Source of the DNA: Planctomycetota bacterium
GTDB taxonomy: Bacteria > Planctomycetota > Planctomycetia > Pirellulales > Pirellulaceae
NCBI GenBank assembly: GCA_026692865.1
Contig: JAPLNI010000029.1
Coordinates: forward strand, 1-64,000
DNA length: 64,000 nt
Direction: 5' to 3'
In this document: piece after piece, positions 21,322 to 36,163 of the stretch
How the letters are laid out: every line of letters begins with the position of its first letter
How positions within the stretch are numbered: the first letter of the stretch is position 1
Notes under the pieces: generated by a model
Told to the model about the DNA's origin: nothing
What the model saw: the letters and a program-made list of their open reading frames with translations, nothing else
Databases searched by the model: none
Made by a program: the position numbers and the translations under genes

Positions 21322-21395
21322 ACGTTGTAAGATTCGGGATACCTTTAACGCCATTAGCTTAGGATGGCTTTCGCTAAGATTATCTATACGGCGAC

Positions 21396-22076
21396 TCAAA
21401 GAACTGCGCAGCGAACCCTGCGGCATAACGATCCAACGGATCTTGCGGCGCGAATCCAACGCGAGATTTTATTTGATTTGGTGTTCTCAGCAAGTTTCGG
21501 TTCGTTCAGCAACCGCACAATCTCGCGTGCATCTTCGAGAGGCGAACTCTCTTGATCAAGTCCTTGCCATTCAAATGGCATGGCCCTGAATGCGGACTCG
21601 CTTGATTCAAATTTATCATTCGATGCACAATCGGAATTGGGCGAGAACTGCGAAGACGATTGAAAATCGCAAGCTTGATCAGAAGTGGACGCATGCGAAA
21701 GCAATTTCGGTTCGGACTGCGTATCTAAAGTTGGCAGCTTGTCTGTAAGCAATGGCAATCGATCACTTGATTCAATATCGCGTGGTAATTCGTCCAGTTC
21801 GCGATAGACGATACAACTCAGTTGCACTCGATCGTAAAGTTGGCTTCGGAACCTTGGGTCTAATAGCCGGTAACCTGCCAAGGCTACTTTGGTCCGACGG
21901 TCCAACCCCTCATGCGTTCCTCTTGGCTTTACTTTCTTACGCAAGTCATTTGATGAAGCGGTCACCGAGTTTCGAATTTTGACAATGTCCGATTCGCCCC
22001 ACGCCAAGCCCAGAAGTCGGTAGTCGCCGACTCGGGTAGATTGCTGATGAAATGGGTTGGGAGTTCTGCGTTTCAC
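21396..22076 (-). CDS. hypothetical protein with degenerate J-domain-like start
   Basis: This 226-residue protein appears to start at GTG 22076. Residues 14-90 follow the spacing of a J-domain: DYRLLGLAWGE, a basic helix, then a helix leading to LLDPRFRSQLYDR. The HPD motif needed to stimulate Hsp70 is absent, so it is at most J-like. The middle is Ser/Glu/Asp rich and probably disordered. The tail is basic (KISRWIRAARSVG). It is convergent with the HTTM gene. The reading frame is credible but the function is unknown. Confidence 0.6.
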   Translation of the reverse strand: MKRRTPNPFHQQSTRVGDYRLLGLAWGESDIVKIRNSVTASSNDLRKKVKPRGTHEGLDRRTKVALAGYRLLDPRFRSQLYDRVQLSCIVYRELDELPRDIESSDRLPLLTDKLPTLDTQSEPKLLSHASTSDQACDFQSSSQFSPNSDCASNDKFESSESAFRAMPFEWQGLDQESSPLEDAREIVRLLNEPKLAENTKSNKISRWIRAARSVGSLCRRVRCAVL

Positions 22077-22668
22077 GATGCTTCGATTTTGAAAGACTTC
22101 GATTTCGGAAGTCGGGATAATTAAGTTGTCGGGATAATTAAGTTGGCAAGGAGTTTGATGTACCCAGATAGATATGCTTCAATAACCGTAGTCGAGTAAT
22201 AAACCCCAACGCTAGTGGGGCGTTTCGCAATTGTTTTGCCACAATAAATAGACGGCATTTATTTCGCAAAAGTTCATTGTTTTTCTTGGGCGCCAGAGGT
22301 GGCTCTGAGTCGCACTAGCGCCGGATTCGCATCCCCAAGAATGAATCGCACGCCCATTTTGCGCCTCGCGTTTGCTTGTGAAACATCCCGAGAATCTTCG
22401 AAACATTTTCATATGAATAGGGAATATCCTGTTCGAAGTGAAAATTCTGCTTTGAGAGCATTGCACGGAAGGTGGTTTTTTGTACACTTATCGGCGTAAT
22501 GTTGGATTTATTTCTAGCGTGACTCTCGAACGACTCACAAGTAGACACGACTCTCCGAAACGAGAAATGACTGAATCTCGGAGAGATGATACTACGCGTT
22601 TAAACACAAAGCCCACAGGTTCGATTTAGAACGATTGCGTAGTCCTAGGATACGAAAGCGAGTGCGGT
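22077..22668. other. 592-base non-coding stretch upstream of recQ
   Basis: No convincing gene is seen here on either strand; short open frames overlap each other without conserved motifs or start signals. It contains a tandem 17-base duplication at 22111-22144. The region lies between divergent genes and should hold the promoters of the J-like protein gene and recQ. Confidence 0.4.
22111..22144. repeat. tandem 17-base duplication
   Basis: GTCGGGATAATTAAGTT occurs twice head to tail without a gap, just upstream of the J-like protein start. It may be a slippage product or a doubled binding site. Confidence 0.8.
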
Positions 22669-24972
22669 ATGTTGATGCAAGAAACCAAGAAACAACAAGA
22701 CACGATAAATCAACTTGGGAAGCCGACTCTTCAGACCGCAATGAAGCAGTATTGGGGGTACGACAGTTTTCGCCCACTGCAACGAGAATCGATGGAATGC
22801 GGAATGAGTCATCAAGACAGCCTTGTGATTCTTCCGACGGGTGGTGGCAAGTCGTTGTGTTTCCAAGTCCCCGCAGTCTGTCATGACGGTCTGACGGTGG
22901 TCGTGTCTCCACTGATATCGTTAATGAAGGACCAAGTCGATACGCTTCGAGAGTGTGGTGTCGAAGCGGCACAGTTGAACAGTTCGATGTCAACAAGCGA
23001 GAAGCGTGAGATCGATATTGCGATTCGTGAGAATCGACTGAAGCTTTTATATGTCGCCCCCGAGCGACTCGCCACGGACGCGATGATCGCTTACTTGAAG
23101 CGTTGCAAAGTCTCCATGATCGCGATCGACGAGGCACACTGTATCAGTGCCTGGGGCCATGATTTTCGTCCCGAGTATCGTATGCTGGGAACGCTGAAGG
23201 AACATTTTCCTGGCATTGGTATTCATGCATATACTGCGACCGCTTCTGAAAAAGTTCGCGATGATATTGCGAGTCAACTACGGTTAGACAATGCTAAAGT
23301 TCTTGTCGGGAATTTTGATCGCCCCAATTTGACTTATCGAGTAGTTCCTTCCAAGAGTCGCTTTGAACAGGTTTGCAACTTGGTGTTAAGTCGTCCCGGT
23401 GAATCGGGCGTTGTTTACTGCATCTCGCGAAAGGAAGTGGATCGCGTTAATGTGGGGCTTCAAGGTTTAGGCGTTCGAGTGCTCCCCTATCACGCTGGGC
23501 TCGACGACATGGAGCGAAAGACTAATCAAGAAGCGTTCCTGCAAGATCGATGTGATGTCATTGTGGCAACGGTCGCCTTTGGTATGGGTATTGATAAGCC
23601 GGATGTACGCTACGTTATTCATGTAGGCGTTCCCAAGTCGCTTGAGCATTATCAACAGGAAAGCGGTCGCGCGGGGCGCGATGGATTGGAGGCGGATTGC
23701 ACGCTGCTGTATAGTCCGGGTGATATTATCACTTGGAGCAAAATGCTTACCGGTAATGGCTCCTCACTGGAAACGCAAGAAAGCCAGTTGCGATCGCTCG
23801 ACACAATTCGCGACTACTGCACGACTCCTACTTGCAGGCACCAATTATTGGTGCGTTACTTTGGTCAAGATCTTTCGAGCGATAATTGCGGTGCGTGCGA
23901 TGTATGCTTGAATGAAGTCGACGTGATGGAAGATTCGCTGCGGATCTCGCAGATGATCGTCTCGTGTGTCGTGCGATTGAATCAACGTTACGGTGTCGAC
24001 TATACAGCCAAAGTATTAACAGCATCCAGTGAACCTAGGATTACTCAACTGGGGCACGATAAATTGAGCACGCATGGATTGCTTAGTGAGTATCCAATCG
24101 CTGCGGTTAAAAGCTGGATGGACCAAGTTATCGCACAAGGCTTCTTGGCTCGAACCACTGAACAGTACTCGACAATAACGGTTACCACGTCAGGTAAGCG
24201 GCTACTCAAAGGAGATGCAACGGTTCGTCTTTCGCGACCGGTTGAATCGACAGCCAGCAAACGTACTAAGCCCAACGATTCCTGGGAAGGGATCGATAGG
24301 GGCGTTTTTGAGATGCTCCGAAACCTTCGAAGCCGATTGTCAACCGAGCGAAACGTGCCGGCGTTCGTAATCTTCGGTGACACGACTCTCCGCGAAATTG
24401 CACGAGTACGTCCGGGTACGCTTCAAGCTTTTTCGCAGCTCCCAGGAGTGGGGCAACGAAAGCTTCTCGATCTTGGACAAGCATTCATCGATGCAACAGT
24501 CGAGTATTGCAAGTCGCAAAAAATCGCAACCGATGTAATCGCTGCGCCTGTCAGAAATCAAGGAGCGCAGCCGGTTGCAAGCACATCTTCCGGCAGCAAG
24601 CAAGCAAATCTTACACCTTCATCGATCGCCACATTCTCGCTCTGGAAATCTGGCATGTCCATCGAGGCCGTATGTGAAAAGACATCGCGGGCTCGATCGA
24701 CAGTTTGCGGCTACCTAGGCGATTACATTCAAACTCACGGTATCACTGACCCATCTCCTTGGGTATCTGCAGCCGAAATTGCCGAAGTCGAGTTGGCGAT
24801 CGCTGCGACGCGGATCAATGATCGAATGCGCCCCCTATTCGACTATACCGAGGGAAAGATCTCCTTCGATTCAATTCGATTTGTATTGGGTTGCTACAAC
24901 AACCGAATGCGCGAACAAGATGCGGGGAAGGGCAATCTTGCTGTTACAAATGATCAAGGAAATTCAATGTGA
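22669..24972 (+). CDS. recQ: ATP-dependent DNA helicase RecQ
   Basis: This 767-residue RecQ unwinds DNA 3'-5' during recombination and repair. Motif 0 is FRPLQRES near 33-40, Walker A is LPTGGGKSL near 55-63, and the DEAH box with the aromatic loop is IDEAHCISAWGHDFR near 151-165. HelC has HVGVPKSLEHYQQESGRAGRD. The zinc-binding module has four Cys (CTTPTC then CGACDVC, near 385-416). An RQC winged helix, an HRDC domain (FGDTTLREIARVRPGT, about 560-620) and a C-terminal helix-turn-helix (about 650-740) follow. It is full length and appears monocistronic. Confidence 0.95.
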   Translation: MLMQETKKQQDTINQLGKPTLQTAMKQYWGYDSFRPLQRESMECGMSHQDSLVILPTGGGKSLCFQVPAVCHDGLTVVVSPLISLMKDQVDTLRECGVEAAQLNSSMSTSEKREIDIAIRENRLKLLYVAPERLATDAMIAYLKRCKVSMIAIDEAHCISAWGHDFRPEYRMLGTLKEHFPGIGIHAYTATASEKVRDDIASQLRLDNAKVLVGNFDRPNLTYRVVPSKSRFEQVCNLVLSRPGESGVVYCISRKEVDRVNVGLQGLGVRVLPYHAGLDDMERKTNQEAFLQDRCDVIVATVAFGMGIDKPDVRYVIHVGVPKSLEHYQQESGRAGRDGLEADCTLLYSPGDIITWSKMLTGNGSSLETQESQLRSLDTIRDYCTTPTCRHQLLVRYFGQDLSSDNCGACDVCLNEVDVMEDSLRISQMIVSCVVRLNQRYGVDYTAKVLTASSEPRITQLGHDKLSTHGLLSEYPIAAVKSWMDQVIAQGFLARTTEQYSTITVTTSGKRLLKGDATVRLSRPVESTASKRTKPNDSWEGIDRGVFEMLRNLRSRLSTERNVPAFVIFGDTTLREIARVRPGTLQAFSQLPGVGQRKLLDLGQAFIDATVEYCKSQKIATDVIAAPVRNQGAQPVASTSSGSKQANLTPSSIATFSLWKSGMSIEAVCEKTSRARSTVCGYLGDYIQTHGITDPSPWVSAAEIAEVELAIAATRINDRMRPLFDYTEGKISFDSIRFVLGCYNNRMREQDAGKGNLAVTNDQGNSM

Positions 24973-25064
24973 GCATCATTGAGTACAAGATTGATGGCCA
25001 CCTCAAGCAGAGCGTAACAAGTGTCTTGGATGCTCACGCGTCGACGCGCCCGTGGATAGGCGGC

Positions 25065-25092
25065 GTCGAAGAATTGATGTCGAAGAATTAAT
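25065..25092. repeat. tandem 14-base near-repeat
   Basis: GTCGAAGAATTGAT is followed at once by a copy with one change, in the convergent spacer after recQ. It is a minor slippage-type repeat. Confidence 0.7.
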
Positions 25093-25126
25093 CTGGCAAT
25101 GCAACACGCTATCGCTGTATCGAGTT

Positions 25127-26248
25127 CTACTTCAAAAGCGATAGTGTCAAAAGAGTGTAACCAGTCACTAAGTTCGTATCGCCTTCAAGCCATCGCGGAT
25201 CACTGTTCACCCACGAGCCATCTTCCTTTTGAGCATCGGCAAGCGTTGTCAGGATGTCGAGTTTCCATGACTTTGATCCATCAAGTGTCTCGAAAGTGTC
25301 GGTCCCGAGAGCACTCAGTGCTTTCGCCATCGTTTGGTAGTAGTAATACAAACCGGAAGTTCCCATTCCAGGGTTTGAGGTCAGCGAATAGTTCTGAGCG
25401 AGGAAGGTTTTCGCAGCTTGAACGCGAGGGTCGTCCTTGTTAACTCCAGCGTAGATCATGCTTTTGAGACCTGCATAGGTCATCGAAGCGTAGGATCGCA
25501 AGCCACCGTTCTCGGTCTTGCCGGCCATGCTATCTCCCCCTGCTGCCGGTGTGTAATAGAATCCACCGTCATCGACTTTGGCAGCGAATGGGGTTGAGTT
25601 ATCGCCAGAAGCACGATTCTGACAGCGAGACACAAAGACAAGTGCCCGTTTGACTGCTTCGTCGTTCCCGTCGCGTCCAAGGCTATTGAGAGCGTCAAGC
25701 AGAAACGAAGTATTCGAAAGATCGGGTCGCGATTTACTTCCGTACCCTGCTCCACCGAAAGCAGTGTCGTCGGACTTGAGCCCTTCGCCTTCGTCCCATT
25801 GCATCTTTTTGATATAGGTTTCAGCACCCTTTAAGAGTTCGGTATAGCGACCATCTTTATTCGCTTTGACCAAAGCCATGATAGAAAGGCATGTTTCGTA
25901 GTTGCTATGCTTTGAATTCGGGGCGTAGATGCCGCCATCATTTTGGCGATAGCTTTCGAGATATTTCAGTGACTTGGCGACCATCGGGTCTTCTCGTGAG
26001 ACATCCGCTGCAAGGAGTCCAGCGGTTACAAGAGCCGTAACACCTAAGCCGCTTTGCTTGCTGAAAGAACCGTCTTCAGCTTGTCCGCGGACACGAAGAA
26101 AGTCTACCGCTTTATCGATCATCGCCTGTCGATCAACGACTTTCGTTTTAGGCGCGGCCGCCTCTTGGGCAATAGTAGTCGGCATTTGCATCATCGTGCT
26201 CAGAGATGCAAAAACGAAAACCATCCGCAAACAATCAATCATCTTCAT
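25127..26248 (-). CDS. exported prenyltransferase/squalene-oxidase-repeat protein
   Basis: This 373-residue protein has a cleavable signal peptide (about 1-27). The rest shows repeated alpha-toroid units of the terpenoid cyclase/prenyltransferase fold (KAVDFLRVRGQAEDGSFS, YLESYRQNDGGIYAPN, AKTFLAQNYSL, LADAQKEDGSWVNSD). The DXDD motif of squalene-hopene cyclase is not seen, and with an export signal a cyclase role is unlikely. Planctomycetes carry many such exported repeat proteins of unknown function. The start ATG has a clear GGGAG Shine-Dalgarno site. Confidence 0.88.
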   Translation of the reverse strand: MKMIDCLRMVFVFASLSTMMQMPTTIAQEAAAPKTKVVDRQAMIDKAVDFLRVRGQAEDGSFSKQSGLGVTALVTAGLLAADVSREDPMVAKSLKYLESYRQNDGGIYAPNSKHSNYETCLSIMALVKANKDGRYTELLKGAETYIKKMQWDEGEGLKSDDTAFGGAGYGSKSRPDLSNTSFLLDALNSLGRDGNDEAVKRALVFVSRCQNRASGDNSTPFAAKVDDGGFYYTPAAGGDSMAGKTENGGLRSYASMTYAGLKSMIYAGVNKDDPRVQAAKTFLAQNYSLTSNPGMGTSGLYYYYQTMAKALSALGTDTFETLDGSKSWKLDILTTLADAQKEDGSWVNSDPRWLEGDTNLVTGYTLLTLSLLK

Positions 26249-26255
26249 GTCAGTA

Positions 26256-26260
26256 CTCCC
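26256..26260 (-). promoter_or_regulatory. ribosome binding site GGGAG
   Basis: On the minus strand GGGAG lies 7 bases before the ATG at 26248. It is one of the few good Shine-Dalgarno sites in the window and fixes that start. Confidence 0.7.
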
Positions 26261-26371
26261 TAGGCGTATTTTAAATTTGGGGTAGCTTGTAATCTGTATT
26301 TTTCAAGGACATCAGGTAGCCAAGTCTTTCCGCAGACTTGTAAAGCGAGCGGCGGATTTCAGCTTACCAAC

Positions 26372-26430
26372 GTGGCATAGACTTCCAGCCTGTGATTAGA
26401 CTGTTTACACAGGCTGGAAGCCTATGCCAC
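26372..26430. repeat. 23-base inverted repeat hairpin element
   Basis: The arms GTGGCATAGACTTCCAGCCTGTG-type (26372-26394) and its reverse complement (26408-26430) differ at one position and enclose a 13-base loop. A partial relative (AGCCTATGCCAT) lies near 27487. It resembles the dispersed palindromic elements common in planctomycete spacers. Confidence 0.85.
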
Positions 26431-26576
26431 TAGTAGTTTTTATCGTGTCGCTCGCTTAAAAAAGCTTTTCTTTGGACTGCTTGTTCCCGCATATAAATCA
26501 AACGCAGCATGGGCTAATCCTATACTGCAAATTCACGGAGGAAATGGCGATTAAAAATTGTCCACGAAGCGGTCGT

Positions 26577-27392
26577 TTAGAGCTTTCGGATGCGGATATT
26601 TCGCCACTGAACTTTGTAAGGGCCATCGGTTGGCTTGATCGAGTGGACTTGGAGGCCGATGAATCCTGATTCGGCCCCGATTGGGTCGGTGATGTCTTCG
26701 ATCAAATTGCCATTGATCCATGTCTGTAGCCGCTTACCAGATGCACGGATGATGTATTGATTCCATTGGTCGTTCTTGAACTTGTCGTGCGGTTCATGGG
26801 TAGGACTCAACCAGCCGCGTCCGGTTGCTTCACCGTAGATGTATCCGGACACTTCCGTTGCGATCTCGATTTGCGGACCGAAGACGTGACCATTTTCGCG
26901 AGCCGGGTCGCTTGCCGAACGAGTTTGGATACCCGAGTTCAATTGCGGGTCGCATTTCACTTCGACGGCGAACTCGAAGTCACCATAGCTTTCCGCAGTG
27001 CAAAGAAACGAGTTCGGACTTTTGGTGTTTGTGGTGCCTTGGATCGTGTCATCGACGATCCGATAGTTTGCCCAGCCATTCTTTTGAATCCAGCCGGTGA
27101 GGTCCTTACCATTAAACAAAATAGTCCAGTCAGATGCGTTCAAATCGGGCATCACGACCGCTGTGTCGCCGGAGTTGCGTGTCACAACAGGTTTGGATTG
27201 CTCGGAGTTTAACTTGCGAGTCGCAGCGTTTTCTTGAGCAATCGCATTGAAATTCCCAAGGATTCCGATCGAGGCAACTGAATTCCAAAACACGAAGGAC
27301 TGGAACGGCTTCCAAAAGGAGGCAATCTTAGCGGTGATACTCTTGGGAGAGGAATTGAAGAGCATGAGACAACGAACTCCGAGAAAGGACAT
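26577..27392 (-). CDS. exported DUF1080 protein (3-keto-disaccharide hydrolase family)
   Basis: This protein of about 271 residues has an N-terminal signal segment near residues 25-47 and a concanavalin-like DUF1080 domain (about 85-271). The block WTILFNGKDLTGW, the ELNSGIQTR-type strand (PQLNSGIQTRS), and WNQYIIRASGKRLQTWINGN are standard. The family includes hydrolases of 3-keto-glycosides and many sugar-binding proteins. The start is ATG 27392 or the in-frame ATG 27365; the second gives a more normal signal peptide. The gene stands alone. Confidence 0.87.
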   Translation of the reverse strand: MSFLGVRCLMLFNSSPKSITAKIASFWKPFQSFVFWNSVASIGILGNFNAIAQENAATRKLNSEQSKPVVTRNSGDTAVVMPDLNASDWTILFNGKDLTGWIQKNGWANYRIVDDTIQGTTNTKSPNSFLCTAESYGDFEFAVEVKCDPQLNSGIQTRSASDPARENGHVFGPQIEIATEVSGYIYGEATGRGWLSPTHEPHDKFKNDQWNQYIIRASGKRLQTWINGNLIEDITDPIGAESGFIGLQVHSIKPTDGPYKVQWRNIRIRKL

Positions 27393-27566
27393 CAACTGGG
27401 AATAGGCATTCGCCCGATAACGATCTAGTATACACAGTCAATGAGATGCCATGAAAGTTGAACCAGCAAAGCGAGCGGCTGAATGAAGCCTATGCCATAT
27501 TGGTTCGCTGAAGTCCGCAACTCGCTTGATAGGCAATCCTCCAGCGTAATTAGTATGGATTTTTGA

Positions 27567-28607
<1,041 letters not shown>

Positions 28608-28622
28608 TGACATTTGTGTTTG

Positions 28623-28991
28623 TTAAGCTACCGCCGCGGTGATGACTAATTCGATGTGATAGTCAGGCGACGCTAATTGAGTATGAAGACATGCACGGCT
28701 AGGAGCGTGTCCCTCGGGAACCCAAGCATCCCACAGTTCATTGAAGCTTCCGAGATCACCTGGGTTGGGCAAGTAAATCGTCACCTGGAGTAGCCGTGTA
28801 CGATCGCTGCCGACTGACTGCAATCTACGATCGACTTGATCAAAAACCATTTGGAATTGCGACTTGGGATCAACCGAGGGATCGTCGGGGACCTCGACAA
28901 AGTAAATGGTCCCCTGATGGACTACTGCATCCGCCCAGCGGCGGGTGACTCCGTAACGAACAATTGTGCGGTCATTTTTGAAGCTGCTCAA
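28623..28991 (-). CDS. RidA/YjgF-family enamine deaminase-like protein
   Basis: This 122-residue protein of the RidA superfamily typically hydrolyses reactive enamines/imines formed by PLP enzymes. It shows the trimeric fold pattern, with VVHQGTIYFVEVP, the VTIYLPNPGDLGSFNELWDAW helix and HAPSRACLHTQLASPDYHIELVITA at the end. An Arg (SRACL) sits where the active-site Arg of RidA proper is found. The apparent start is TTG at 28991. It is convergent with hemB, 15 bases apart. Confidence 0.85.
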   Translation of the reverse strand: MSSFKNDRTIVRYGVTRRWADAVVHQGTIYFVEVPDDPSVDPKSQFQMVFDQVDRRLQSVGSDRTRLLQVTIYLPNPGDLGSFNELWDAWVPEGHAPSRACLHTQLASPDYHIELVITAAVA

Positions 28992-29320
28992 AGTGTCTGC
29001 CGGTGTTGAGATAAGGATTTGGGCCTGGAAATTGGAAACTTGGAACTCAGTTCGGAAAACTGGTGCGTCAACTTCCAGATAACCTTGTTCTAAAAATCCG
29101 GATCGTACAAGCTCTTCACCCGAACAAATGAATTAAAGTTAAGAAAAAAATCGCTATTCTCTGTGGGTAATTTCTTGCGAGAACAAACCGCAAAACCGGT
29201 ATAGAAACTCTACGAATGGATTGCTACACTCGAACCTCCAACGAAGGACAGTCGACCGCCGTCAATACATGTCGGCCTTGACCAGGCTGACTTTGTCGGT
29301 TAGATAATCTGTTACGAAAA
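28992..29320. other. 329-base spacer upstream of tRNA-Cys
   Basis: I see no gene here. The region lies between the minus-strand RidA gene and the plus-strand tRNA, so it should carry both promoters. An A-rich run near 29137-29150 is visible but no certain promoter. Confidence 0.3.
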
Positions 29321-29392
29321 GGCTCCGTCGCCAAGTGGCTAAGGCAGCGGATTGCAAATCCGCCACCGTCGGTTCAAATCCGACCGGAGCCT
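29321..29392 (+). tRNA. tRNA-Cys (anticodon GCA)
   Basis: The cloverleaf is complete. The acceptor stem GGCTCCG pairs with CGGAGCC, the D-loop has TGGC, the anticodon stem GCGGA/TCCGC encloses TTGCAAA (anticodon GCA), and the T-arm is GTCGG TTCAAAT CCGAC. The discriminator base is T, the known identity element of tRNA-Cys. The 3' CCA is not encoded. It is followed by a strong terminator. Confidence 0.95.
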
Positions 29393-29402
29393 CATAATGC
29401 AA

Positions 29403-29445
29403 AACCCCGTGTGAAGCAATGCTACACACGGGGTTCTGTGTTTTT
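29403..29445 (+). terminator. rho-independent terminator after tRNA-Cys
   Basis: The perfect 11-base inverted repeat AACCCCGTGTG (29403-29413) and CACACGGGGTT (29425-29435) encloses an 11-base loop. A T-run at 29441-29445 follows, 5 bases after the stem. It sits 10 bases past the tRNA. Confidence 0.85.
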
Positions 29446-29558
29446 GCGGCCTGTTGTCGGGTTCAAATTCGCAAGAAAAGGTCCGGGGTCACCTGCACGG
29501 GTTGCTAGGACTATTTTTTTGCTTTGCCGATCAACATTCGCGGGGGTGGCTTCCCTGG

Positions 29559-30347
29559 TTAATGTCCGCCTTTGTGTTTGTCTTTGGGGGCTTCGTCGCC
29601 GTGCCCGGAGGTAGCTGCGGGGACGTTTGCGCCTTCCATTGCTTTTGCGAGTTCGGCTTCTGTGGGTGGCTTTGCTGATTGTGATGAAACCATTCGCTTC
29701 ATCATTTCTGCAGGTGCTTCGTAGGTCTCGTCCAAGAGGTAAATTTCGACTCGAGCATTGGCGTTCGGGTCTACTGATTGACCGACAAAGCGAGGCTCGG
29801 ATCCGCCAGCTTGGCTGAGCCGCATTCGCTCCGGTTCAACACCTTGTTTTGACAGAAACTCGAAGACAACGAGCGATCGACGGTAAGAGATCATCAACGA
29901 GTCCAGCAGCGCATTCTCGCCTCGTGAAGTGTCATTCACTGCGTGACCGCGAACTTCGATTCGATGAGGCTTACCAACCAACTCGGGAAGAAGTTCCTTT
30001 AATCGCGATTCCCCTTCTGGTGAAAGGTTTACGGAATTGGGATCGAACTGGATCATCGTACCGATGTTAGACCGCTTACCCTCATCGGTCATCTTGGTTG
30101 CGCCGTAGATAGGCTGCTTTCCGCGAGTACGAGTTCGTTTGCCGCCTGATGAATCGTTCCTGCTCGGTAGGATGGACTGATTTGGATTTCCGGTTATCTG
30201 TTTACCCGATGGATTACGAAAATATTCAGAGACAGCTTCTTTTAGCTCTGGCTTTTGCGAGGTGAGCCACATAACCATAAAGAACGCCATCATCGCCGTA
30301 ACGAAGTCCGCATAAGCAACTTTCCATGCACCACCTCCGCCCGCCAT
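29559..30347 (-). CDS. motB: flagellar motor stator protein MotB
   Basis: This 262-residue MotB has a short N-terminus (MAGGGGAWKVAYADF) and one TM helix carrying the proton-path Asp (Asp14 in AYADFVTAMMAFFMVMWL). A plug/linker and an OmpA-like peptidoglycan-binding domain (about 95-220) follow, with HRIEVRGHAVND and NARVEIYLL. The Ala/Lys/His-rich tail is variable. It follows motA by about 90 bases. With MotA it forms the stator that drives flagellar rotation; no other flagellar gene is visible nearby. Confidence 0.92.
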   Translation of the reverse strand: MAGGGGAWKVAYADFVTAMMAFFMVMWLTSQKPELKEAVSEYFRNPSGKQITGNPNQSILPSRNDSSGGKRTRTRGKQPIYGATKMTDEGKRSNIGTMIQFDPNSVNLSPEGESRLKELLPELVGKPHRIEVRGHAVNDTSRGENALLDSLMISYRRSLVVFEFLSKQGVEPERMRLSQAGGSEPRFVGQSVDPNANARVEIYLLDETYEAPAEMMKRMVSSQSAKPPTEAELAKAMEGANVPAATSGHGDEAPKDKHKGGH

Positions 30348-30440
30348 GATTGTATATCCTTAAAAGTTACTTGCTACGTTATCTTCCGAGCTCGGCAAAG
30401 AACTCATCCTGTCCAACACTCAACTCAATCTGATCGTGAG

Positions 30441-31304
30441 TTAGCCGCCAGTATCGATCGCCTTCATAAGCTTCTCCATCGTCTCTGCCTCTGGGCGAAC
30501 ATCACGACAGAGTCCTCGACGACCAGTCTCGATCGCCATCTTGGGTTGCATGCCGCCAAAGAAACCTTGCATTACCGTTGATAGCGTTCGGAAGTAAGCG
30601 CTTTCGGAATGGCCCAAGACCTCCATCTTTCCTGCGAGTGGCGCGAAAAATCCGTACGAAAGCAAAATCCCTAACATCGTTCCAACCAGAGCAGCACCGA
30701 CGTGGTGACCGATCTCTTCCACCGGGCCATCGATGTGTGCCATCGTGACCACAATCCCAAGAACCGCCGCGACGATTCCGAAGCCAGGTAAACCGTCAGC
30801 CGTTTTCGTGAGTGCGACAACCGGCGCGTGATGCTGATCTTCCATCGCCTTGAGCTCTATCTCCAAAAGCGGCCCGATCTCTTCGCCCTTAACCGATCCG
30901 TCGATAATTGGACCAAACGCACCTTTGATAAATTCGGTTGCATGATGATCTGCAGCTAGCTTTGGATACTTGGAGAATATTGCACTACTATGTGGGTCGG
31001 AGATATGCGATTCCAGTGCGAGCATCCCATCTTTCCGAGCAACCCGAAAAAGCTCGTACAGCGCAGAAAATGATTCTTCATAAGCCGGGCGTTCGTAGGG
31101 AGACCCCTTCATCGTCTGCATGATTCCTTTCATCAAGTCGATTAGCACAGGAACTGGAGCCATGACGATCAAAGCACCAAACGACGCACCACCAATCACG
31201 AGTACTTCGTATGGTTGCCATAACGCCATGATGTGACCGCCGGATAATACGAATCCGGCTAGCACGCACCCTGTTACAACGACAAATCCGATAATCACAA
31301 ACAT
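30441..31304 (-). CDS. motA: flagellar motor stator protein MotA
   Basis: This 287-residue MotA has four TM helices. The start MFVIIGFVVVTGCVLAGFVLSGG and the QPYEVLVIGGASFGALI block match the family. The paired helices near 165-225 include the torque-related PGFGIVAAVLGIVVTM and GTMLGILLSYGFFAPL. The cytoplasmic loop has GMLALESHI. It lies upstream of motB on the same strand and is the first gene of the pair. Confidence 0.93.
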   Translation of the reverse strand: MFVIIGFVVVTGCVLAGFVLSGGHIMALWQPYEVLVIGGASFGALIVMAPVPVLIDLMKGIMQTMKGSPYERPAYEESFSALYELFRVARKDGMLALESHISDPHSSAIFSKYPKLAADHHATEFIKGAFGPIIDGSVKGEEIGPLLEIELKAMEDQHHAPVVALTKTADGLPGFGIVAAVLGIVVTMAHIDGPVEEIGHHVGAALVGTMLGILLSYGFFAPLAGKMEVLGHSESAYFRTLSTVMQGFFGGMQPKMAIETGRRGLCRDVRPEAETMEKLMKAIDTGG

Positions 31305-31347
31305 GAGGCAGTCATCCTACGAAACCAACACGGTTCTCTTAACCATC

Positions 31348-31377
31348 TGTGGCAAGCTTGTGGGGGACCTTGCCACA
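31348..31377. repeat. 9-base inverted repeat hairpin
   Basis: TGTGGCAAG and CTTGCCACA form a perfect stem with a 12-base loop, shortly upstream of motA. It has no T-run and could be a regulatory palindrome or element remnant. Confidence 0.6.
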
Positions 31378-31602
31378 CAAACTCGCCCATGGCATATACC
31401 ACTCGGATTGGACACCTCAAAATCGGACAAACCGATTTTCACCGAAAAGACGTCGTTACGTAGGACCTGATCAGATTAGTAGGATTAATCAGGATTTCTT
31501 GCCATCTCACGTATCGCTACGGCGATCTACAGCCTGAAATCGACAGCAGGTTATCCCCTATGCTGTAGCTAGCGCCTCATGCTTTGGCTGACCTAATGAA
31601 AT

Positions 31603-31677
31603 CTGAGCCGATGGCGCTAGCCACGGGTTTTGATTTTGCCGCAATTTGCCAGATAGCACCCGAGGCGATGGCTCAGG
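31603..31677 (+). repeat. GAGCCG-type dispersed repeat, copy B
   Basis: The left end CTGAGCCGATGGCGCTAGCC and right end GGCTCAGG form terminal inverted repeats. The interior ACGGGTTTTGATTTTGCC is nearly identical to copy C at 37523. It lies in the spacer upstream of the SMC-like ATPase gene. Confidence 0.8.
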
Positions 31678-31958
31678 GAAAATCCCTTGTTCATCACCCC
31701 AGGCTCAGGAGCAGGTTTATAGATGTGGAACAGATCGGCGGATTAGTTTCGAGAAGCGGTCTCCGGAAAATTCTGACAAAAAGTTGTAAAGCTTCTATTT
31801 TTCCTGAAGTTCAGATGTGGAATTCATCTTTACCCAGAATACCGGCGTCTGCTAGTTTACGAGGAGACCGAACTGAGTAGCACGCGGCAGGAATCGCGGT
31901 AGTCGCTGAAGTTCGAGGACATTGTCTGAAAAAATTGTAGGCCACGGAGGAGCCACTG

Positions 31959-34900
31959 ATGCGACTAGTAAGCATAGATATCGACCCGCAAAACCGATCC
32001 AGCAGGATTCATCTTGGGCCATTTGTTGCGGGGCTGAACGCTGTTTGGGGTGCCCGAGGCGCTGGCAAAAGCACAATTACGCGGTTTGTTCGCGGGCTTT
32101 TGTACAACCGCCATCGCGACTCGAGCGGTAATGGCCAGGAAGCCGTCGATGGTTTAGTGGGTTCGCTTCAATGGGCCGACAGTGCGGGAACCTCACGCGT
32201 GGTTTCATCTGCAGATTGCCTAAGCGACCGCGACTACTGCCTCGATGGGCCTTATCATTTCGGTCGACAGAGTTCACTACGAACCGATGCGTCCTATCCG
32301 CACTCGCAAAGCTCCGAGCAACCATGGCATCGTATTGGAAGTGAAATCTACGACGCCGTGTTCTGCGGACGACTCGGAGAGACACTTCCCGAGCGTCTTT
32401 GGCAAGCGGCTCGCGAACTGGGAATTCATATTGCAACCGGGCATCAACATGATGAAACCTATCGTCGATTGAAGGCTGAGCAACACCGATTAGAACAACG
32501 ACTACATCACCTGCGCGTCGATGACCGTGATCGCGCTTGGTGGGCTACCGAGCGTGATCGATTGGTATGCCGCGCAGAAGAAATTCGTTTGCACCCCGAG
32601 CGTCATTTGCTACCGGCTGCCGGTCGCGGGCCCTCTCTTGCCGCAGTTACATCCGGCGTCTACGGTGGTTACTCAAGCGTATCCGGTTCTCCTGCTTATC
32701 GCGATCTAGAATCGCAATTGGTTGCCCTGCGTGCCGAAGCCTCTGAATTAGACGCTCGCTTTGCTGATCTCTCGCGAGCAATTCTCGAACACCGCCGCAG
32801 CCCTGAGTCGACTGGTTACTCTTCGGGTTCTCCTACCATATCGGAAAGCCAACAGTCGAGCGGGCGTTACGTCCGTTCCAACGCTACCGAAAATGACCAC
32901 TATGGTTCATGGGTTGGTTATTCTAAACACCGCGTTGCGCCGAAGCAGTTTTCTAGCAGTCTAGCCGATCTGCACCGTGAACAAGAAGTAGTAGCGGCTC
33001 GCAAATTGGAACTTGTTGCACTGATTGAAGAACTTCAAAGCAAGATGCATCTTGACCGCACAAAGCTTGGTCAGAATGCAACCGCTGCATGGGAATTGGA
33101 AGAGATTCAGCAGCGAGTTCTTTACGCTGAAGAAGTCCTGAAGAGCTGGGATCTCTACGAAACGACTCGTCGTCGACTGGCAGAGGTTCAACAACAATTG
33201 CGGGGCAATGGTCCCTACCACGATGCGACTCAAGGCGCATTCTTACAAACAGTCGAGCGATACGTTCGGGAGCTTTCCGCTGGTTCGCTTCGACATTTAC
33301 CATCTTGGGCAATGGAAGCACTCCGCCGCGATCTTGGCTTCGCAGCCGGTCTTGCAAAGCAAGGTCGCCCTGAAAGCTATCGCGAAGTTTATCGTGATTA
33401 TCGGCCTGATCTGAGTCGCATGGATCATGCGGTCCCGGCATCTCAATCGTCGGAACGTCAGTTGGTAGAGCTTGCAATTCGAATGGCGATTTGCGATTCG
33501 GCCGCTCATCGAATTGGACGTTTGCCATTAATTCTCGATGATGCACTCGATGGTTTCCACGGAGCCACGTTAGACCACTTGATCCGAGTCTTGATTGAGT
33601 TTGCTCGTGAGGGCCAGCAGGTTCTCTTGATGACTAGCGAATCAGAAGTCGCTCAGCGTGTTCGCGGTCACCATGGTTGGGTTGCTCAGCTGAATTCGCC
33701 GATCGTCAACGTAGCTGCTCCAACAGTGTCGACTGACTCCTTTATTCAACCAGCGCGAACTACGTTCGCACCCGCAGCTATCAACGCTCCAATGTATTAC
33801 GATCCAGCATATGTCGATATCAATGCTCAGCTGTCGGCTGCCGCTGAATCATCTGCAGGAATTCTCTTTGAAGGTGCTTGGCAAGAACCTGCACCAACAC
33901 AGTTCATACCGCAAAGTGTCTATCGACCCAGGGAGTATCCAACTGCAAGCGAAGATTCAGCGTGGTCTACGTCGCGCGTCGCTGTCGCTAGCACGAATGC
34001 CAATGCAACATTATTTCTCTCGCCTCGAAGTCCAATCGAAGATGCACCTAACATGATGATGCCATCCGCAAGAGGGCAAGCGTCACTTGCGACCGGACTT
34101 CGGTCGATGGGAATTCGATCCGTGGGTTCATTCCTGAATGTTGATCCAGTTGCGATTGCGAATAGCTTGGCAAGCTTGGGTGTGACCGCAGAAGAGATTG
34201 CCGACCGGCAGGCCGAGCAGAAACTCATGTGCACGATTCCAAACTTGCGTTCTTTCGACGCGAGAATTCTCGTCGGTTGCGGTGTACACGATGCAGCAGA
34301 TCTCGCCGCAATTCCTCGAGGAAGACTGCTCAAGACAGTTGAAAGATTTCTAACAACTCCGCGAGGTCAAAACATACTTCGAAGCGGTAGCAATTTTGAG
34401 GTTTCTCGAATGACTACATGGCTTGCCTCGGCCGGTCGCACAGTGTCTCGTCATCGATTTAACAGTGAATCGACCCAACGACCAAGTAGCCGACGAAAGC
34501 GACTTCGCGCACTCAAACAGTCAGGCGAAAGACACTCGCCACAAATCGAACAACCAACACGAGAGCGAACACAAGAGCGACCATCTGAACGAACTCGAAT
34601 CGTCAGTAGCGTTCCTGCCGCAAAGACAGTCGCGTCGAGCAAGAAATCAACACTTCAGTTCTATTTAGACTTAACCAGCCCGATTGTCGATGCGCCAAGC
34701 ATTGGACCACGCGTTGCCGAGCAGCTAAACGCGATCGGAATTCAAACGGTAAATGACTTTCTTCGCGCCAATGCGACGACCGTTGCAATGCAGCTTGAAG
34801 AGAAGCGGATAACTGCTGCAACGATCGTGGACTGGCAGAATCAAGCCACGCTCGTTTGCCGTATCCCAAACCTTCGCGGGCACGATGCACAGCAGTTAGT

Positions 34901-35090
34901 CGCCGCCGGAATCACAACCGCCGAGCAACTTGCTTCTTCAAACGTCAGCTCCTTGGTCAATAAAGTGGTCACGTTTGCATCCAGCAAATTGGGTCAACGC
35001 GTGTTACGTGGCGCGGCTGCCGCAGACGAAGTAGAGGTCCGTGATTGGATCCGCTGGGCAACAAGCAGCCGAACCCTGCGTGCAGCGTAA
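31959..35090 (+). CDS. YhaN/SMC-like ATPase fused to two DUF4332 domains
   Basis: This 1043-residue protein has an ABC-type ATPase head split by a coiled coil. Walker A GARGAGKST is at 31-39, the signature-like SSERQLVELAIRMA near 497-511, and Walker B LPLILDDALDGF near 521-532. Helical, Gln/Glu/Arg-rich arms occupy about 165-470. The start MRLVSIDID...GLNAVWGARGAGKST resembles YhaN-type AAA domains. Residues about 690-820 and 900-1040 are two related DUF4332 (helix-hairpin-helix-like) units: LMCTIPNLRSFDARILVGCGV aligns with LVCRIPNLRGHDAQQLVAAGI. No YhaO-type nuclease lies nearby. DNA binding or repair is inferred. Confidence 0.85.
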   Translation: MRLVSIDIDPQNRSSRIHLGPFVAGLNAVWGARGAGKSTITRFVRGLLYNRHRDSSGNGQEAVDGLVGSLQWADSAGTSRVVSSADCLSDRDYCLDGPYHFGRQSSLRTDASYPHSQSSEQPWHRIGSEIYDAVFCGRLGETLPERLWQAARELGIHIATGHQHDETYRRLKAEQHRLEQRLHHLRVDDRDRAWWATERDRLVCRAEEIRLHPERHLLPAAGRGPSLAAVTSGVYGGYSSVSGSPAYRDLESQLVALRAEASELDARFADLSRAILEHRRSPESTGYSSGSPTISESQQSSGRYVRSNATENDHYGSWVGYSKHRVAPKQFSSSLADLHREQEVVAARKLELVALIEELQSKMHLDRTKLGQNATAAWELEEIQQRVLYAEEVLKSWDLYETTRRRLAEVQQQLRGNGPYHDATQGAFLQTVERYVRELSAGSLRHLPSWAMEALRRDLGFAAGLAKQGRPESYREVYRDYRPDLSRMDHAVPASQSSERQLVELAIRMAICDSAAHRIGRLPLILDDALDGFHGATLDHLIRVLIEFAREGQQVLLMTSESEVAQRVRGHHGWVAQLNSPIVNVAAPTVSTDSFIQPARTTFAPAAINAPMYYDPAYVDINAQLSAAAESSAGILFEGAWQEPAPTQFIPQSVYRPREYPTASEDSAWSTSRVAVASTNANATLFLSPRSPIEDAPNMMMPSARGQASLATGLRSMGIRSVGSFLNVDPVAIANSLASLGVTAEEIADRQAEQKLMCTIPNLRSFDARILVGCGVHDAADLAAIPRGRLLKTVERFLTTPRGQNILRSGSNFEVSRMTTWLASAGRTVSRHRFNSESTQRPSSRRKRLRALKQSGERHSPQIEQPTRERTQERPSERTRIVSSVPAAKTVASSKKSTLQFYLDLTSPIVDAPSIGPRVAEQLNAIGIQTVNDFLRANATTVAMQLEEKRITAATIVDWQNQATLVCRIPNLRGHDAQQLVAAGITTAEQLASSNVSSLVNKVVTFASSKLGQRVLRGAAAADEVEVRDWIRWATSSRTLRAA

Positions 35091-35248
35091 ATTGAGATTG
35101 ATGTCCGCTCTAAATTTTTTGGTAGCTGAATTCGTAAGAATTCAGATGGAGATTGGGACACCAATAAAAACTGTAGTCTTCAGATGTCTTACGACATCTG
35201 CTACAAATACAAAATCAAGTTTTTAAGTTGGATGAAGCACTAGCTTCC

Positions 35249-36163
35249 ATGGCGCATCATCATTTCTTGTTATCGATAACTTTGGCAATCACCCTGACTG
35301 TCGCGGTATCCAAGTCGCACATGGCTTGCGCGGGAGATGACTTTCTTGATTCATTTGACCAGATAAACCCAGATGCAGCCGAGCGTCCTCAGGAACCGGT
35401 CATTAATCTACCTGTGTCATTAGACAACTATCTCCAAGCCTCGAATCCAAGCTCGTTAGCGTCGGCATCGGATGAAGAATCACTCAGCAGAATGATTCGA
35501 TGGTTGGTTCTTAAAAACTTGCCACCAAGCTACGAAGACAATCGAGGATGGGGGAAGCAGAAGGAAATCTACGATGGTTTTCGATTTCGCAACGAAGGGC
35601 TCAAAGTCGAAACCTATCGCAAATACAAAACCGTCAAGCACGGGACTTGGAAACGTTATCACCTGGAATTGGTCGATCCTCAATCCACGTTACAAATTCA
35701 TCTAAAGGATTTGCGAAACCTTTCTAATAATCGCTTTGCATTTCATCTAACCTTGGAGACGCCATTGAAAGTGTTTGGGCGAATTAGCCAATGGCAGCGA
35801 GACGTGCAACTCATCAGCATCTCCACCAACGCATCCGTTGCCGTGCAAGTAGAAATCGACGCTGAATGCAGTGTCCAGATGAACCCACTTGTTTTTCCGC
35901 CCGACATGCAATTCTCACCAACCGTAACTAAGGCGACAGTGCGACTTACCAAAATGGAAGTCGATCGAATCAGTCAAATCCGAGGCGACATCGCCGAGGA
36001 GCTCGGCAAAGGTCTGCGAGGTTTCGTCGATGAATATCTTCGTGAATACGACGACAAGCTAGTCGCTAAGATGAATAAACAGCTCGACAAACAAAAGGAC
36101 AAGCTGCGAGTCTCCACGATCGATTACCTGCCAAAGTTTATTCAGCCGACTTCGTCACCCTGA
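35249..36163 (+). CDS. exported hypothetical protein
   Basis: This 304-residue protein has a signal peptide (MAHHHFLLSITLAITLTVAV, about 1-28). The frame is open to a TTG at 35228, but ATG 35249 gives the better signal. The mature part looks mostly beta-stranded (residues about 100-230), ending in a charged helix (YDDKLVAKMNKQLDKQKDKLR). No named family is recognised; it resembles a planctomycete-conserved hypothetical. It follows the ATPase gene by about 160 bases, so co-transcription is possible but not evident. Confidence 0.7.
   Translation: MAHHHFLLSITLAITLTVAVSKSHMACAGDDFLDSFDQINPDAAERPQEPVINLPVSLDNYLQASNPSSLASASDEESLSRMIRWLVLKNLPPSYEDNRGWGKQKEIYDGFRFRNEGLKVETYRKYKTVKHGTWKRYHLELVDPQSTLQIHLKDLRNLSNNRFAFHLTLETPLKVFGRISQWQRDVQLISISTNASVAVQVEIDAECSVQMNPLVFPPDMQFSPTVTKATVRLTKMEVDRISQIRGDIAEELGKGLRGFVDEYLREYDDKLVAKMNKQLDKQKDKLRVSTIDYLPKFIQPTSSP

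What the first reader, a model, noticed from the sequence alone, without database searches (positions are those of the whole stretch)
31959..35090. Large SMC/YhaN-like ATPase fused to a duplicated DUF4332 region
An ABC-type head (Walker A at 31-39, signature near 497-511, Walker B near 521-532) with coiled-coil arms is joined to two internally related helix-hairpin-helix-like DUF4332 units. YhaN-type proteins usually work with a YhaO nuclease, but none is near. The fused DNA-binding-like units might replace a separate partner, or this may be a DNA-structure sensor. This is the best candidate for an uncharacterised system in the window.
Basis: partly seen in the sequence, partly recalled or inferred. 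Interest (0 to 1): 0.62.

Follow-up and report, generated by a model that had tools for sequence, protein, structure and literature searches.

The report
Orphaned YhaN-like ATPase carrying helix-hairpin-helix repeats
This gene makes a relative of a DNA-repair motor protein that no longer sits beside its nuclease partner, lacks parts of the usual ATP engine and carries two helix-hairpin-helix units, so a repair machine may have been rebuilt as a stand-alone DNA-binding or structural protein in these bacteria.

Summary
In detail: ORF 31959-35090 (1043 aa) has a YhaN-type ABC head and two related DUF4332 units, both over Pfam's cut-off; unit 2 models as helix-hairpin-helix (pLDDT 83). The interpretation needs revising. 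The same plan occurs in three families of the class (codes f1, f7, f21; no names held), and the unit duplication predates their split (99% SH-aLRT). In f21, 10 of 12 fusions lie beside a YhaO-like gene with altered metal motifs, and 12 of 12 heads keep Walker A, signature and Walker B. In f1 and f7, 0 of 66 have a detected YhaO-like neighbour; 2 of 65 heads keep all three motifs, and Walker A is lost in 23 of 65 (10 changes on the tree, at least 5 forced). True YhaN paralogs: 21 of 21 intact, each beside YhaO. So the units coexist with a partner in f21 and do not simply replace it. The window's head keeps Walker A and B, lacks signature and switch histidine, yet is under strong purifying selection (dN/dS 0.01-0.04). 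Best reading: an orphaned YhaN descendant, probably a non-nucleolytic DNA-binding coiled-coil protein that binds ATP but hydrolyses it poorly. History well supported; DNA binding and role inferred. New variant of a known kind.

The parts
31946..31952 (+). Probable ribosome-binding site GGAGGAG
   Evidence: read; six bases before the ATG
31959..35090 (+). The gene: 1043 aa, YhaN-like head plus two DUF4332 units
   Evidence: dN/dS 0.07 against L032
31959..32453 (+). N-lobe of the ABC head, residues 1-165 (boundary approximate)
   Evidence: alignment with YhaN; dN/dS 0.038
32049..32072 (+). Walker A GARGAGKS, residues 31-38, intact
32454..33248 (+). Arms with a Ser/Tyr-rich, probably disordered middle, residues 166-430; Walker A to B distance 490 residues against 931-1054 in 21 YhaN
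   Evidence: helices in the low-confidence model; distances
33249..33698 (+). C-lobe of the ABC head, residues 431-580 (boundary approximate)
   Evidence: dN/dS 0.012
33441..33464 (+). Degenerate ABC signature, residues 495-502 (SQSSERQL; YhaN e.g. LSRGTREQ)
33522..33542 (+). Walker B LPLILDD, residues 522-528, intact, with Asp as second acid as in YhaN
33639..33641 (+). Position of the YhaN switch histidine, here Glu561
33699..34013 (+). Variable linker, residues 581-685
   Evidence: dN/dS 0.218, 68% identity to L032
34014..34457 (+). DUF4332 unit 1, residues 686-833
   Evidence: Pfam core 34089-34433, 31.1 bits
34458..34649 (+). Basic inter-unit linker, residues 834-897, net charge +10
34650..35087 (+). 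DUF4332 unit 2, residues 898-1043, helix-hairpin-helix model
   Evidence: Pfam core 34695-35063, 84.4 bits; model of residues 895-1043, pLDDT 83.2

Best explanation
The gene encodes a descendant of YhaN (Rad50-like subunit of the YhaO-YhaN pair) that acquired two DUF4332 helix-hairpin-helix units, no longer has YhaO beside it and has lost part of its ATPase machinery. SHOWN by sequence: YhaN-type head; two related DUF4332 units whose duplication is older than the split of families f1, f7 and f21; no detected YhaO neighbour in f1/f7; motif decay in f1/f7 but not in f21 or in true YhaN paralogs; strong purifying selection on head and units in the window's genus. Supported by a model: HhH fold of unit 2. 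INFERRED: the window protein binds ATP (Walker A and B intact) but hydrolyses it poorly or not at all (signature and switch His gone). Its heads act as a dimerisation module. The units and the basic linker between them hold DNA or a nucleoprotein. The whole works as a stand-alone, non-nucleolytic tether or clamp in genome maintenance or chromosome organisation.
For: Head: hhalign of 24 relatives vs 12 YhaN, 100%, E 1.2e-58; profile matches to Rad50 C-lobe chains (3qkt E 1e-12, 1f2t_B 7e-7). Common descent of the fusion: all 40 unit-1 copies sampled from f1, f7 and f21 form one side of a branch (99*). Partner: YhaO-like gene beside 21 of 21 YhaN and 10 of 12 f21 fusions; a profile of these 31 finds none in 66 f1/f7 loci (63 of 66 have at least 1.5 kb upstream). 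Motifs, all of Walker A, signature and Walker B kept: YhaN 21/21, f21 12/12, f7 2/20, f1 0/45. Walker A lost in 23/65, its lysine in 18/65; 10 changes, at least 5 forced. dN/dS against L032: N-lobe 0.038, C-lobe 0.012, unit 2 0.042, linkers about 0.22. HhH; Pfam HHH_5 25.4 bits in the window (under its cut-off of 27), 41.7 and 35.9 in relatives L048 and L065. Inter-unit linker net positive in 58 of 65.
Against: DNA binding is not shown: structural neighbours include NusA AR2, which I recall as protein-binding; the units are near neutral in the family (median net charge 0 to -4; window +6 and +1). The best Z, 9.2, covers 62 residues, and the tool warns that such Z can be common in helical models; Foldseek's best E is 0.47. 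The full-length model is unusable (pLDDT 40), so head fold and dimerisation rest on sequence. 42 of 65 f1/f7 heads keep Walker A, so ATP use may persist. Partner loss happened in few lineages, so its link with motif decay is a correlation. In the head tree all 12 f21 fusions group with true YhaN rather than with f1/f7 fusions (87, not starred), five of them (genus g154) more closely (94); this speaks against one fusion event, though the unit tree speaks for it and many f1/f7 heads are long branches.
Confidence: 0.5

Rival explanations
1. It is still an active ATP-driven DNA machine: hydrolysis occurs with a non-canonical signature, and it shares the YhaO-like protein encoded beside the true YhaN elsewhere in the genome (G000:C50).
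For: Walker A and B are intact in the window protein and C-lobe dN/dS is 0.012; a YhaO-like gene exists in the genome.
Against: Signature S and G and the switch His are gone; 0 of 45 f1 heads keep all three motifs; Walker A is lost in 23 of 65 relatives of the same plan. The only YhaO match in the genome sits directly before YhaN and shows no GNH[DE] or GHxH motif.
Confidence: 0.2
2. The HhH units bind a protein, not DNA (as I recall for NusA AR2 and RAD51-paralog N-domains), and the protein is a scaffold in a process not centred on DNA.
For: Closest fold matches are RAD51-paralog N-domains and NusA AR2; units carry little net positive charge in the family; DUF4332 is also joined to a phospholipase-C-like domain in relatives.
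Against: The head belongs to a DNA-repair lineage; the inter-unit linker is net positive in 58 of 65 members; Y-family polymerase HhH regions match too.
Confidence: 0.25
3. Anti-phage defence protein (many defence ATPases share this kind of head; recalled).
For: PADLOC mads_3 match, 20.5 bits, E 7e-5.
Against: The match is weak and lies on the generic head (residues 498-575); no gene family recurs beside 46 loci; found in 33 f1 genera including the window's. Whether these loci lie in islands was not examined.
Confidence: 0.05

Closest known systems
YhaN, partner of YhaO (SbcF/SbcE by recall)
   Same: Head and arm homology over 677 columns; true paralog in the same genome, L073:6320-10225.
   Different: No YhaO neighbour; signature and switch His lost; arms about half as long (490 against 931-1054 residues Walker A to B); two DUF4332 units added.
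Rad50/SbcC and SMC proteins
   Same: ABC head in two lobes with arms between (profile matches).
   Different: No CxxC hook in the sequence, no Mre11/SbcD-like partner seen nearby, degenerate signature.
DUF4332 (Pfam PF14229)
   Same: Both units match above the curated cut-off.
   Different: The Pfam model describes a 122-residue domain of unknown function; here it is duplicated at the end of an ABC-type head.
Phospholipase-C-like proteins ending in DUF4332 (L074 and kin)
   Same: C-terminal unit close to unit 2 of the window protein.
   Different: Different N-terminal domain; no ABC head detected.

Membership tests
YhaN/SbcF | Homologous head and arms | tested here: met
   hhalign 100%, E 1.2e-58; relatives 21-91% identical to the window protein bridge the gap
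YhaN/SbcF | Complete ABC motif set (Walker A, signature, Walker B, switch His) | tested here: not met
   window: Walker A and B yes, signature and His no; control YhaN 21 of 21 have all four
YhaN/SbcF | YhaO encoded next door | tested here: not met
   none found in the window or at 65 f1/f7 relatives; control 21 of 21 YhaN loci
DUF4332 (PF14229) | Score above curated cut-off | tested here: met
   105.6 bits for the protein; units 31.1 and 84.4 against 23.2
Helix-hairpin-helix fold | HhH topology in a confident model | tested here: met
   unit 2 model pLDDT 83.2; rows headed by RAD51-paralog N-domains, NusA AR2 and Y-family polymerases, Z 9.2 to 6.9 over about 60 residues, regions I recall as HhH; one high row, 1y88, is of unknown function. 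Unit 1 was not modelled alone; the second half of the unit is not covered
Nucleic-acid-binding protein | Binds DNA or RNA | not testable with these tools
   basic inter-unit linker is indirect
Active ABC-type ATPase | ATP hydrolysis | not testable with these tools
   motif loss argues against canonical hydrolysis
Rad50/SbcC | Zinc hook CxxC between the arms | tested here: not met
   no CxxC in the translation (read directly)
Anti-phage defence (PADLOC models) | Specific model match | tested here: inconclusive
   best 20.5 bits to mads_3 on the generic head; PADLOC gives no curated cut-off

The most novel reading that the evidence does not exclude
A whole family of Rad50/SMC-like pseudo-ATPases: in Planctomycetia a YhaO-YhaN repair pair took up two DUF4332 units, its nuclease subunit decayed and was lost from the locus in two families, and the motor then decayed in several lineages independently, leaving a one-protein structural chromosome factor that uses its head as a nucleotide-locked or nucleotide-free dimerisation module.
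Probability: 0.3. Interest if true: 0.75.

Novelty: new variant of a known kind. Interest (0 to 1): 0.55.

Why it matters
Rad50/SMC-type proteins are thought of as ATP-driven machines with dedicated partners. A widespread family in which the partner gene, the signature and often Walker A are gone, while the head stays under strong selection (measured in the window's genus), is a natural test of which head functions need no ATP turnover. It would also give DUF4332 a context: one paper of the searched library mentions it, in a figure legend that lists an operon's genes (passage).

Tried and rejected
Partner gene: genes within 9 kb at 54 loci (46 fusions with the window's, 7 phospholipase-type, 1 YhaN) clustered by BLASTP; apart from the fusion, no cluster reached more than 7 loci, and one of those is the phospholipase type itself (simple ORF calling, E 1e-6, half coverage). 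The 311-aa gene downstream (35228-36163) is kept in the same genus (90%) but joins no cluster of three or more loci. Upstream order changes even within the genus. No partner proposed.

Relatives from whole genomes were not handed to the structure tool because its rule names other sources.

My first motif table read the signature columns one residue off; replace it for the signature. L046 (cut by a contig end) was left out of Walker A counts; L163's start was trimmed by hand before its N-lobe was scored. The regex for YhaO motifs I and II was crude; the alignment is used for those. In one search, 11 further YhaO-like loci were tried as positive controls: two (L189, L191) show all four motifs, L176 shows GNHD at a place I did not check, eight gave no frame with motif I.

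Defence: weak PADLOC match only. PHROGs: generic matches. PDB by single sequence: none.

Literature: DUF4332 (1 paper; passage); YhaN/YhaO (224 papers, 25 listed, none on this family among the titles shown); SbcEF (passages of PMC6452273 and PMC12748557); Planctomycet + helix-hairpin-helix + SMC; pseudo-ATPase + Rad50; planctomycete nucleoid (listing); degenerate Walker/SMC (listing, 3); Planctomycet + YhaN. 'Not in print' is claimed only for these searches of this library.

Full report
OBSERVATION. The ORF at 31959-35090 (+) encodes 1043 aa from an ATG, with GGAGGAG six bases upstream. Pfam finds DUF4332 twice (E 2.4e-30); in the genome search both units pass the curated cut-off. Walker A (31-38) and Walker B (522-528) are present. 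Against the nearest relative held (L032, 91% identical) overall dN/dS is 0.07; N-lobe 0.038, arms 0.038, C-lobe 0.012, unit 1 0.086, unit 2 0.042, the two linkers 0.22. It is a real, constrained gene.

HEAD. No PDB sequence matches the single protein, but a profile of 24 relatives matches Rad50 and SMC structures, including a short Rad50 C-lobe chain (1f2t_B, 148 aa, E 7e-7). Long coiled coils such as myosin match too, so only head chains count here. Against 12 true YhaN proteins the profile-profile match is 100%, E 1.2e-58, over 677 columns. The true YhaN of this genome lies on another contig, directly behind a YhaO-like gene.

UNITS. Units 1 and 2 are 34% identical in the window protein. A model of residues 895-1043 from four permitted rows (window and L032, both units) has pLDDT 83.2, pTM 0.77. 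VIA-align on 311 Foldseek candidates puts RAD51-paralog N-domains first (Z 9.2, rmsd 2.6, 62 residues); NusA AR2 (7.7) and Y-family polymerases (7.5 and less) follow, with one protein of unknown function (1y88, 8.1) among them. I recall the named regions as helix-hairpin-helix domains. Only model residues 7-84 are well covered, and Foldseek's best E is 0.47. Sequence profiles give a similar weak list (best E 0.014 and 0.28). Pfam HHH_5 scores 25.4 bits in the window (cut-off 27) and passes in relatives. Between the units lies a linker of net charge +10; it is net positive in 38 of 45 f1 and 20 of 20 f7 members.

FAMILY. In 199 genomes of the window's family f1, 188 have some match, but many matches are YhaN or other DUF4332 proteins. 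I fetched 45 further f1 fusions (32 genera) besides the window's, 20 in family f7 of the same order and 12 in family f21 of the same class. They were picked from the listed matches, not drawn at random. Among the 35 f1 genomes I count, by score, frame length and the loci read, 20 with the fusion and 15 without (genera g19, g44, g41, g32, g4), so it is widespread but not universal. In 196 genomes of the order, the listed matches that reach the DUF4332 part in long frames are from f1 and f7; f12 and f13 show shorter DUF4332 proteins (frames of 531-775 aa), and in some f7 genomes only weaker matches appear (list cut). In 294 genomes of the phylum 26 match the unit-1 profile: 3 of f1, 15 of f21 and eight weak ones in frames of 145-385 aa; some of the f1 and f21 ones are the shorter phospholipase type. 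Both units are found in 65 of 66 f1/f7 fusions; L081 has one. In f21, L167-L169 have one, the other nine two.

ONE DUPLICATION. In a tree of 94 single units (31 of 65 two-unit f1/f7 fusions, 12 f21, 11 phospholipase type), all 40 unit-1 copies from f1, f7 and f21 form one side of a branch (99*), and all unit-2 copies with the phospholipase-type units lie on the other (146 columns, many forks unresolved). So the tandem is older than the split of the three families. Unit 2 of genus g154 lies apart from that of the other f21 fusions, so their history may be mixed.

NEIGHBOURHOOD. Among 54 loci compared, no gene family besides the fusion recurs at more than 7. A YhaO query and then a 31-sequence YhaO profile (E up to 0.01) find a YhaO-like gene beside 21 of 21 YhaN and beside 10 of 12 f21 fusions (not L163, L166), and nothing else in any locus (simple ORF calling). 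So none is found at 66 f1/f7 fusions; 63 of 66 have at least 1.5 kb upstream in view, where YhaO would lie.

MOTIFS. Heads that keep Walker A (GK[ST]), signature (S and G) and Walker B (D then D/E): YhaN 21, 21, 21 of 21; f21 12, 12, 12 of 12; f7 13, 2, 16 of 20; f1 29, 4, 14 of 45 (L046 left out). All three: 21/21, 12/12, 2/20, 0/45. Switch His: 21/21, 5/12, 0/20, 5/45. Of the 23 f1/f7 heads without Walker A, five keep its lysine (L039, L041, L043, L049, L060), so the lysine is lost in 18 of 65. The window keeps Walker A and B, not signature or His. On a tree of the paired units (66 rows, quick method) the Walker A state needs 10 changes, at least 5 forced by starred branches; such counts cannot tell gain from loss, but regain from residues such as HRDSETIRS is implausible. 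Walker A to B distance is 931-1054 residues in YhaN, 235-770 in f1 (window 490), 523-607 in f7, 469-960 in f21.

PARTNER DECAY. In the YhaO-like partners of f21 fusions, D or H of the motif I D-x-H is changed in 10 of 10, and the D of motif II is gone. But 5 of the 21 partners of true YhaN also have N in motif II, and none of the 31 shows GNH[DE] or GHxH, while two other YhaO-like genes in the sampled genomes have all four motifs (L189, L191; L176, a YhaO close to the window genome's, shows GNHD at an unchecked place). So nuclease decay may be wider than the fusion family and is not proof for it.

INTERPRETATION. The most economical history: a YhaO-YhaN pair of ancestral Planctomycetia took up the DUF4332 tandem (kept as a pair in most f21 loci); in f1 and f7 YhaO was lost from the locus and the head's motifs decayed, while head and units stayed under selection. 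Against it: in the head tree all 12 f21 fusions group with true YhaN (87, not starred), five of genus g154, the only YhaN found in their genomes, more closely (94); and nine sampled f1 fusions group with f7 in the paired-unit tree. Shared conserved motifs and long f1/f7 branches may explain the first. Mechanism beyond this is inference: ATP binding without normal hydrolysis, head-mediated dimers, DNA or nucleoprotein binding through HhH units and the basic linker. The confidence of 0.5 is for the whole statement including DNA tethering; I hold 'orphaned YhaN descendant' at about 0.85.

KNOWN SYSTEMS. SbcEF is described as implicated in double-strand break repair with a poorly characterised role (passage in PMC6452273) and as SMC-like (passage in PMC12748557); that SbcEF equals YhaO/YhaN is recalled, not from a call. 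The window protein fails two defining features of that pair (partner, full motif set), so it is filed as a derived variant, not a member.

Noticed in passing
L074, L079 (7607-9538, 8130-10094); also L075-L078, L080, L170-L172, L174: A second DUF4332 architecture of 509-695 aa: phospholipase-C-like N-terminus (PF00882, 29.8 bits in L074, over its cut-off of 26.8; 24.8 in L079, under it) with one DUF4332 unit. Only L074 and L079 were scanned by Pfam; the others are placed here by length and unit.
   Followed up: partly
L073:4988-6271 and 30 further YhaO-like genes: YhaO-like partners of planctomycete YhaN and YhaN-DUF4332 show no GNH[DE] or GHxH motif in 31 of 31, while L189 and L191 have all four motifs: possibly widespread dead nucleases paired with intact YhaN heads.
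   Followed up: partly
L164, L165, L167-L169 (genus g154, family f21): The only YhaN found in these genomes is itself fused to one or two DUF4332 units, with an altered YhaO next to it and intact Walker A, signature and Walker B.
   Followed up: partly
G000:C57:217924-218289 (L138): A small stand-alone DUF4332 gene (133-aa frame) elsewhere in the genome.
   Followed up: no
L080, 15570-16571: A 333-aa protein resembling only the head C-lobe, a few kb from a phospholipase-type DUF4332 gene; could be a split head.
   Followed up: no
window 21392-31778 against L032: In a same-genus genome the region upstream of the gene is rearranged: window block 21392-27392 sits there inverted, and motA, motB and the ALAD gene give no match in that stretch; the break is near 31778.
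   Followed up: no
window 35228-36163: 311-aa protein of unknown function directly downstream, 90% identical in the same genus, no family match above cut-off.
   Followed up: partly
window 29559-31304: MotA and MotB genes just upstream on the opposite strand; flagellar context not examined.
   Followed up: no
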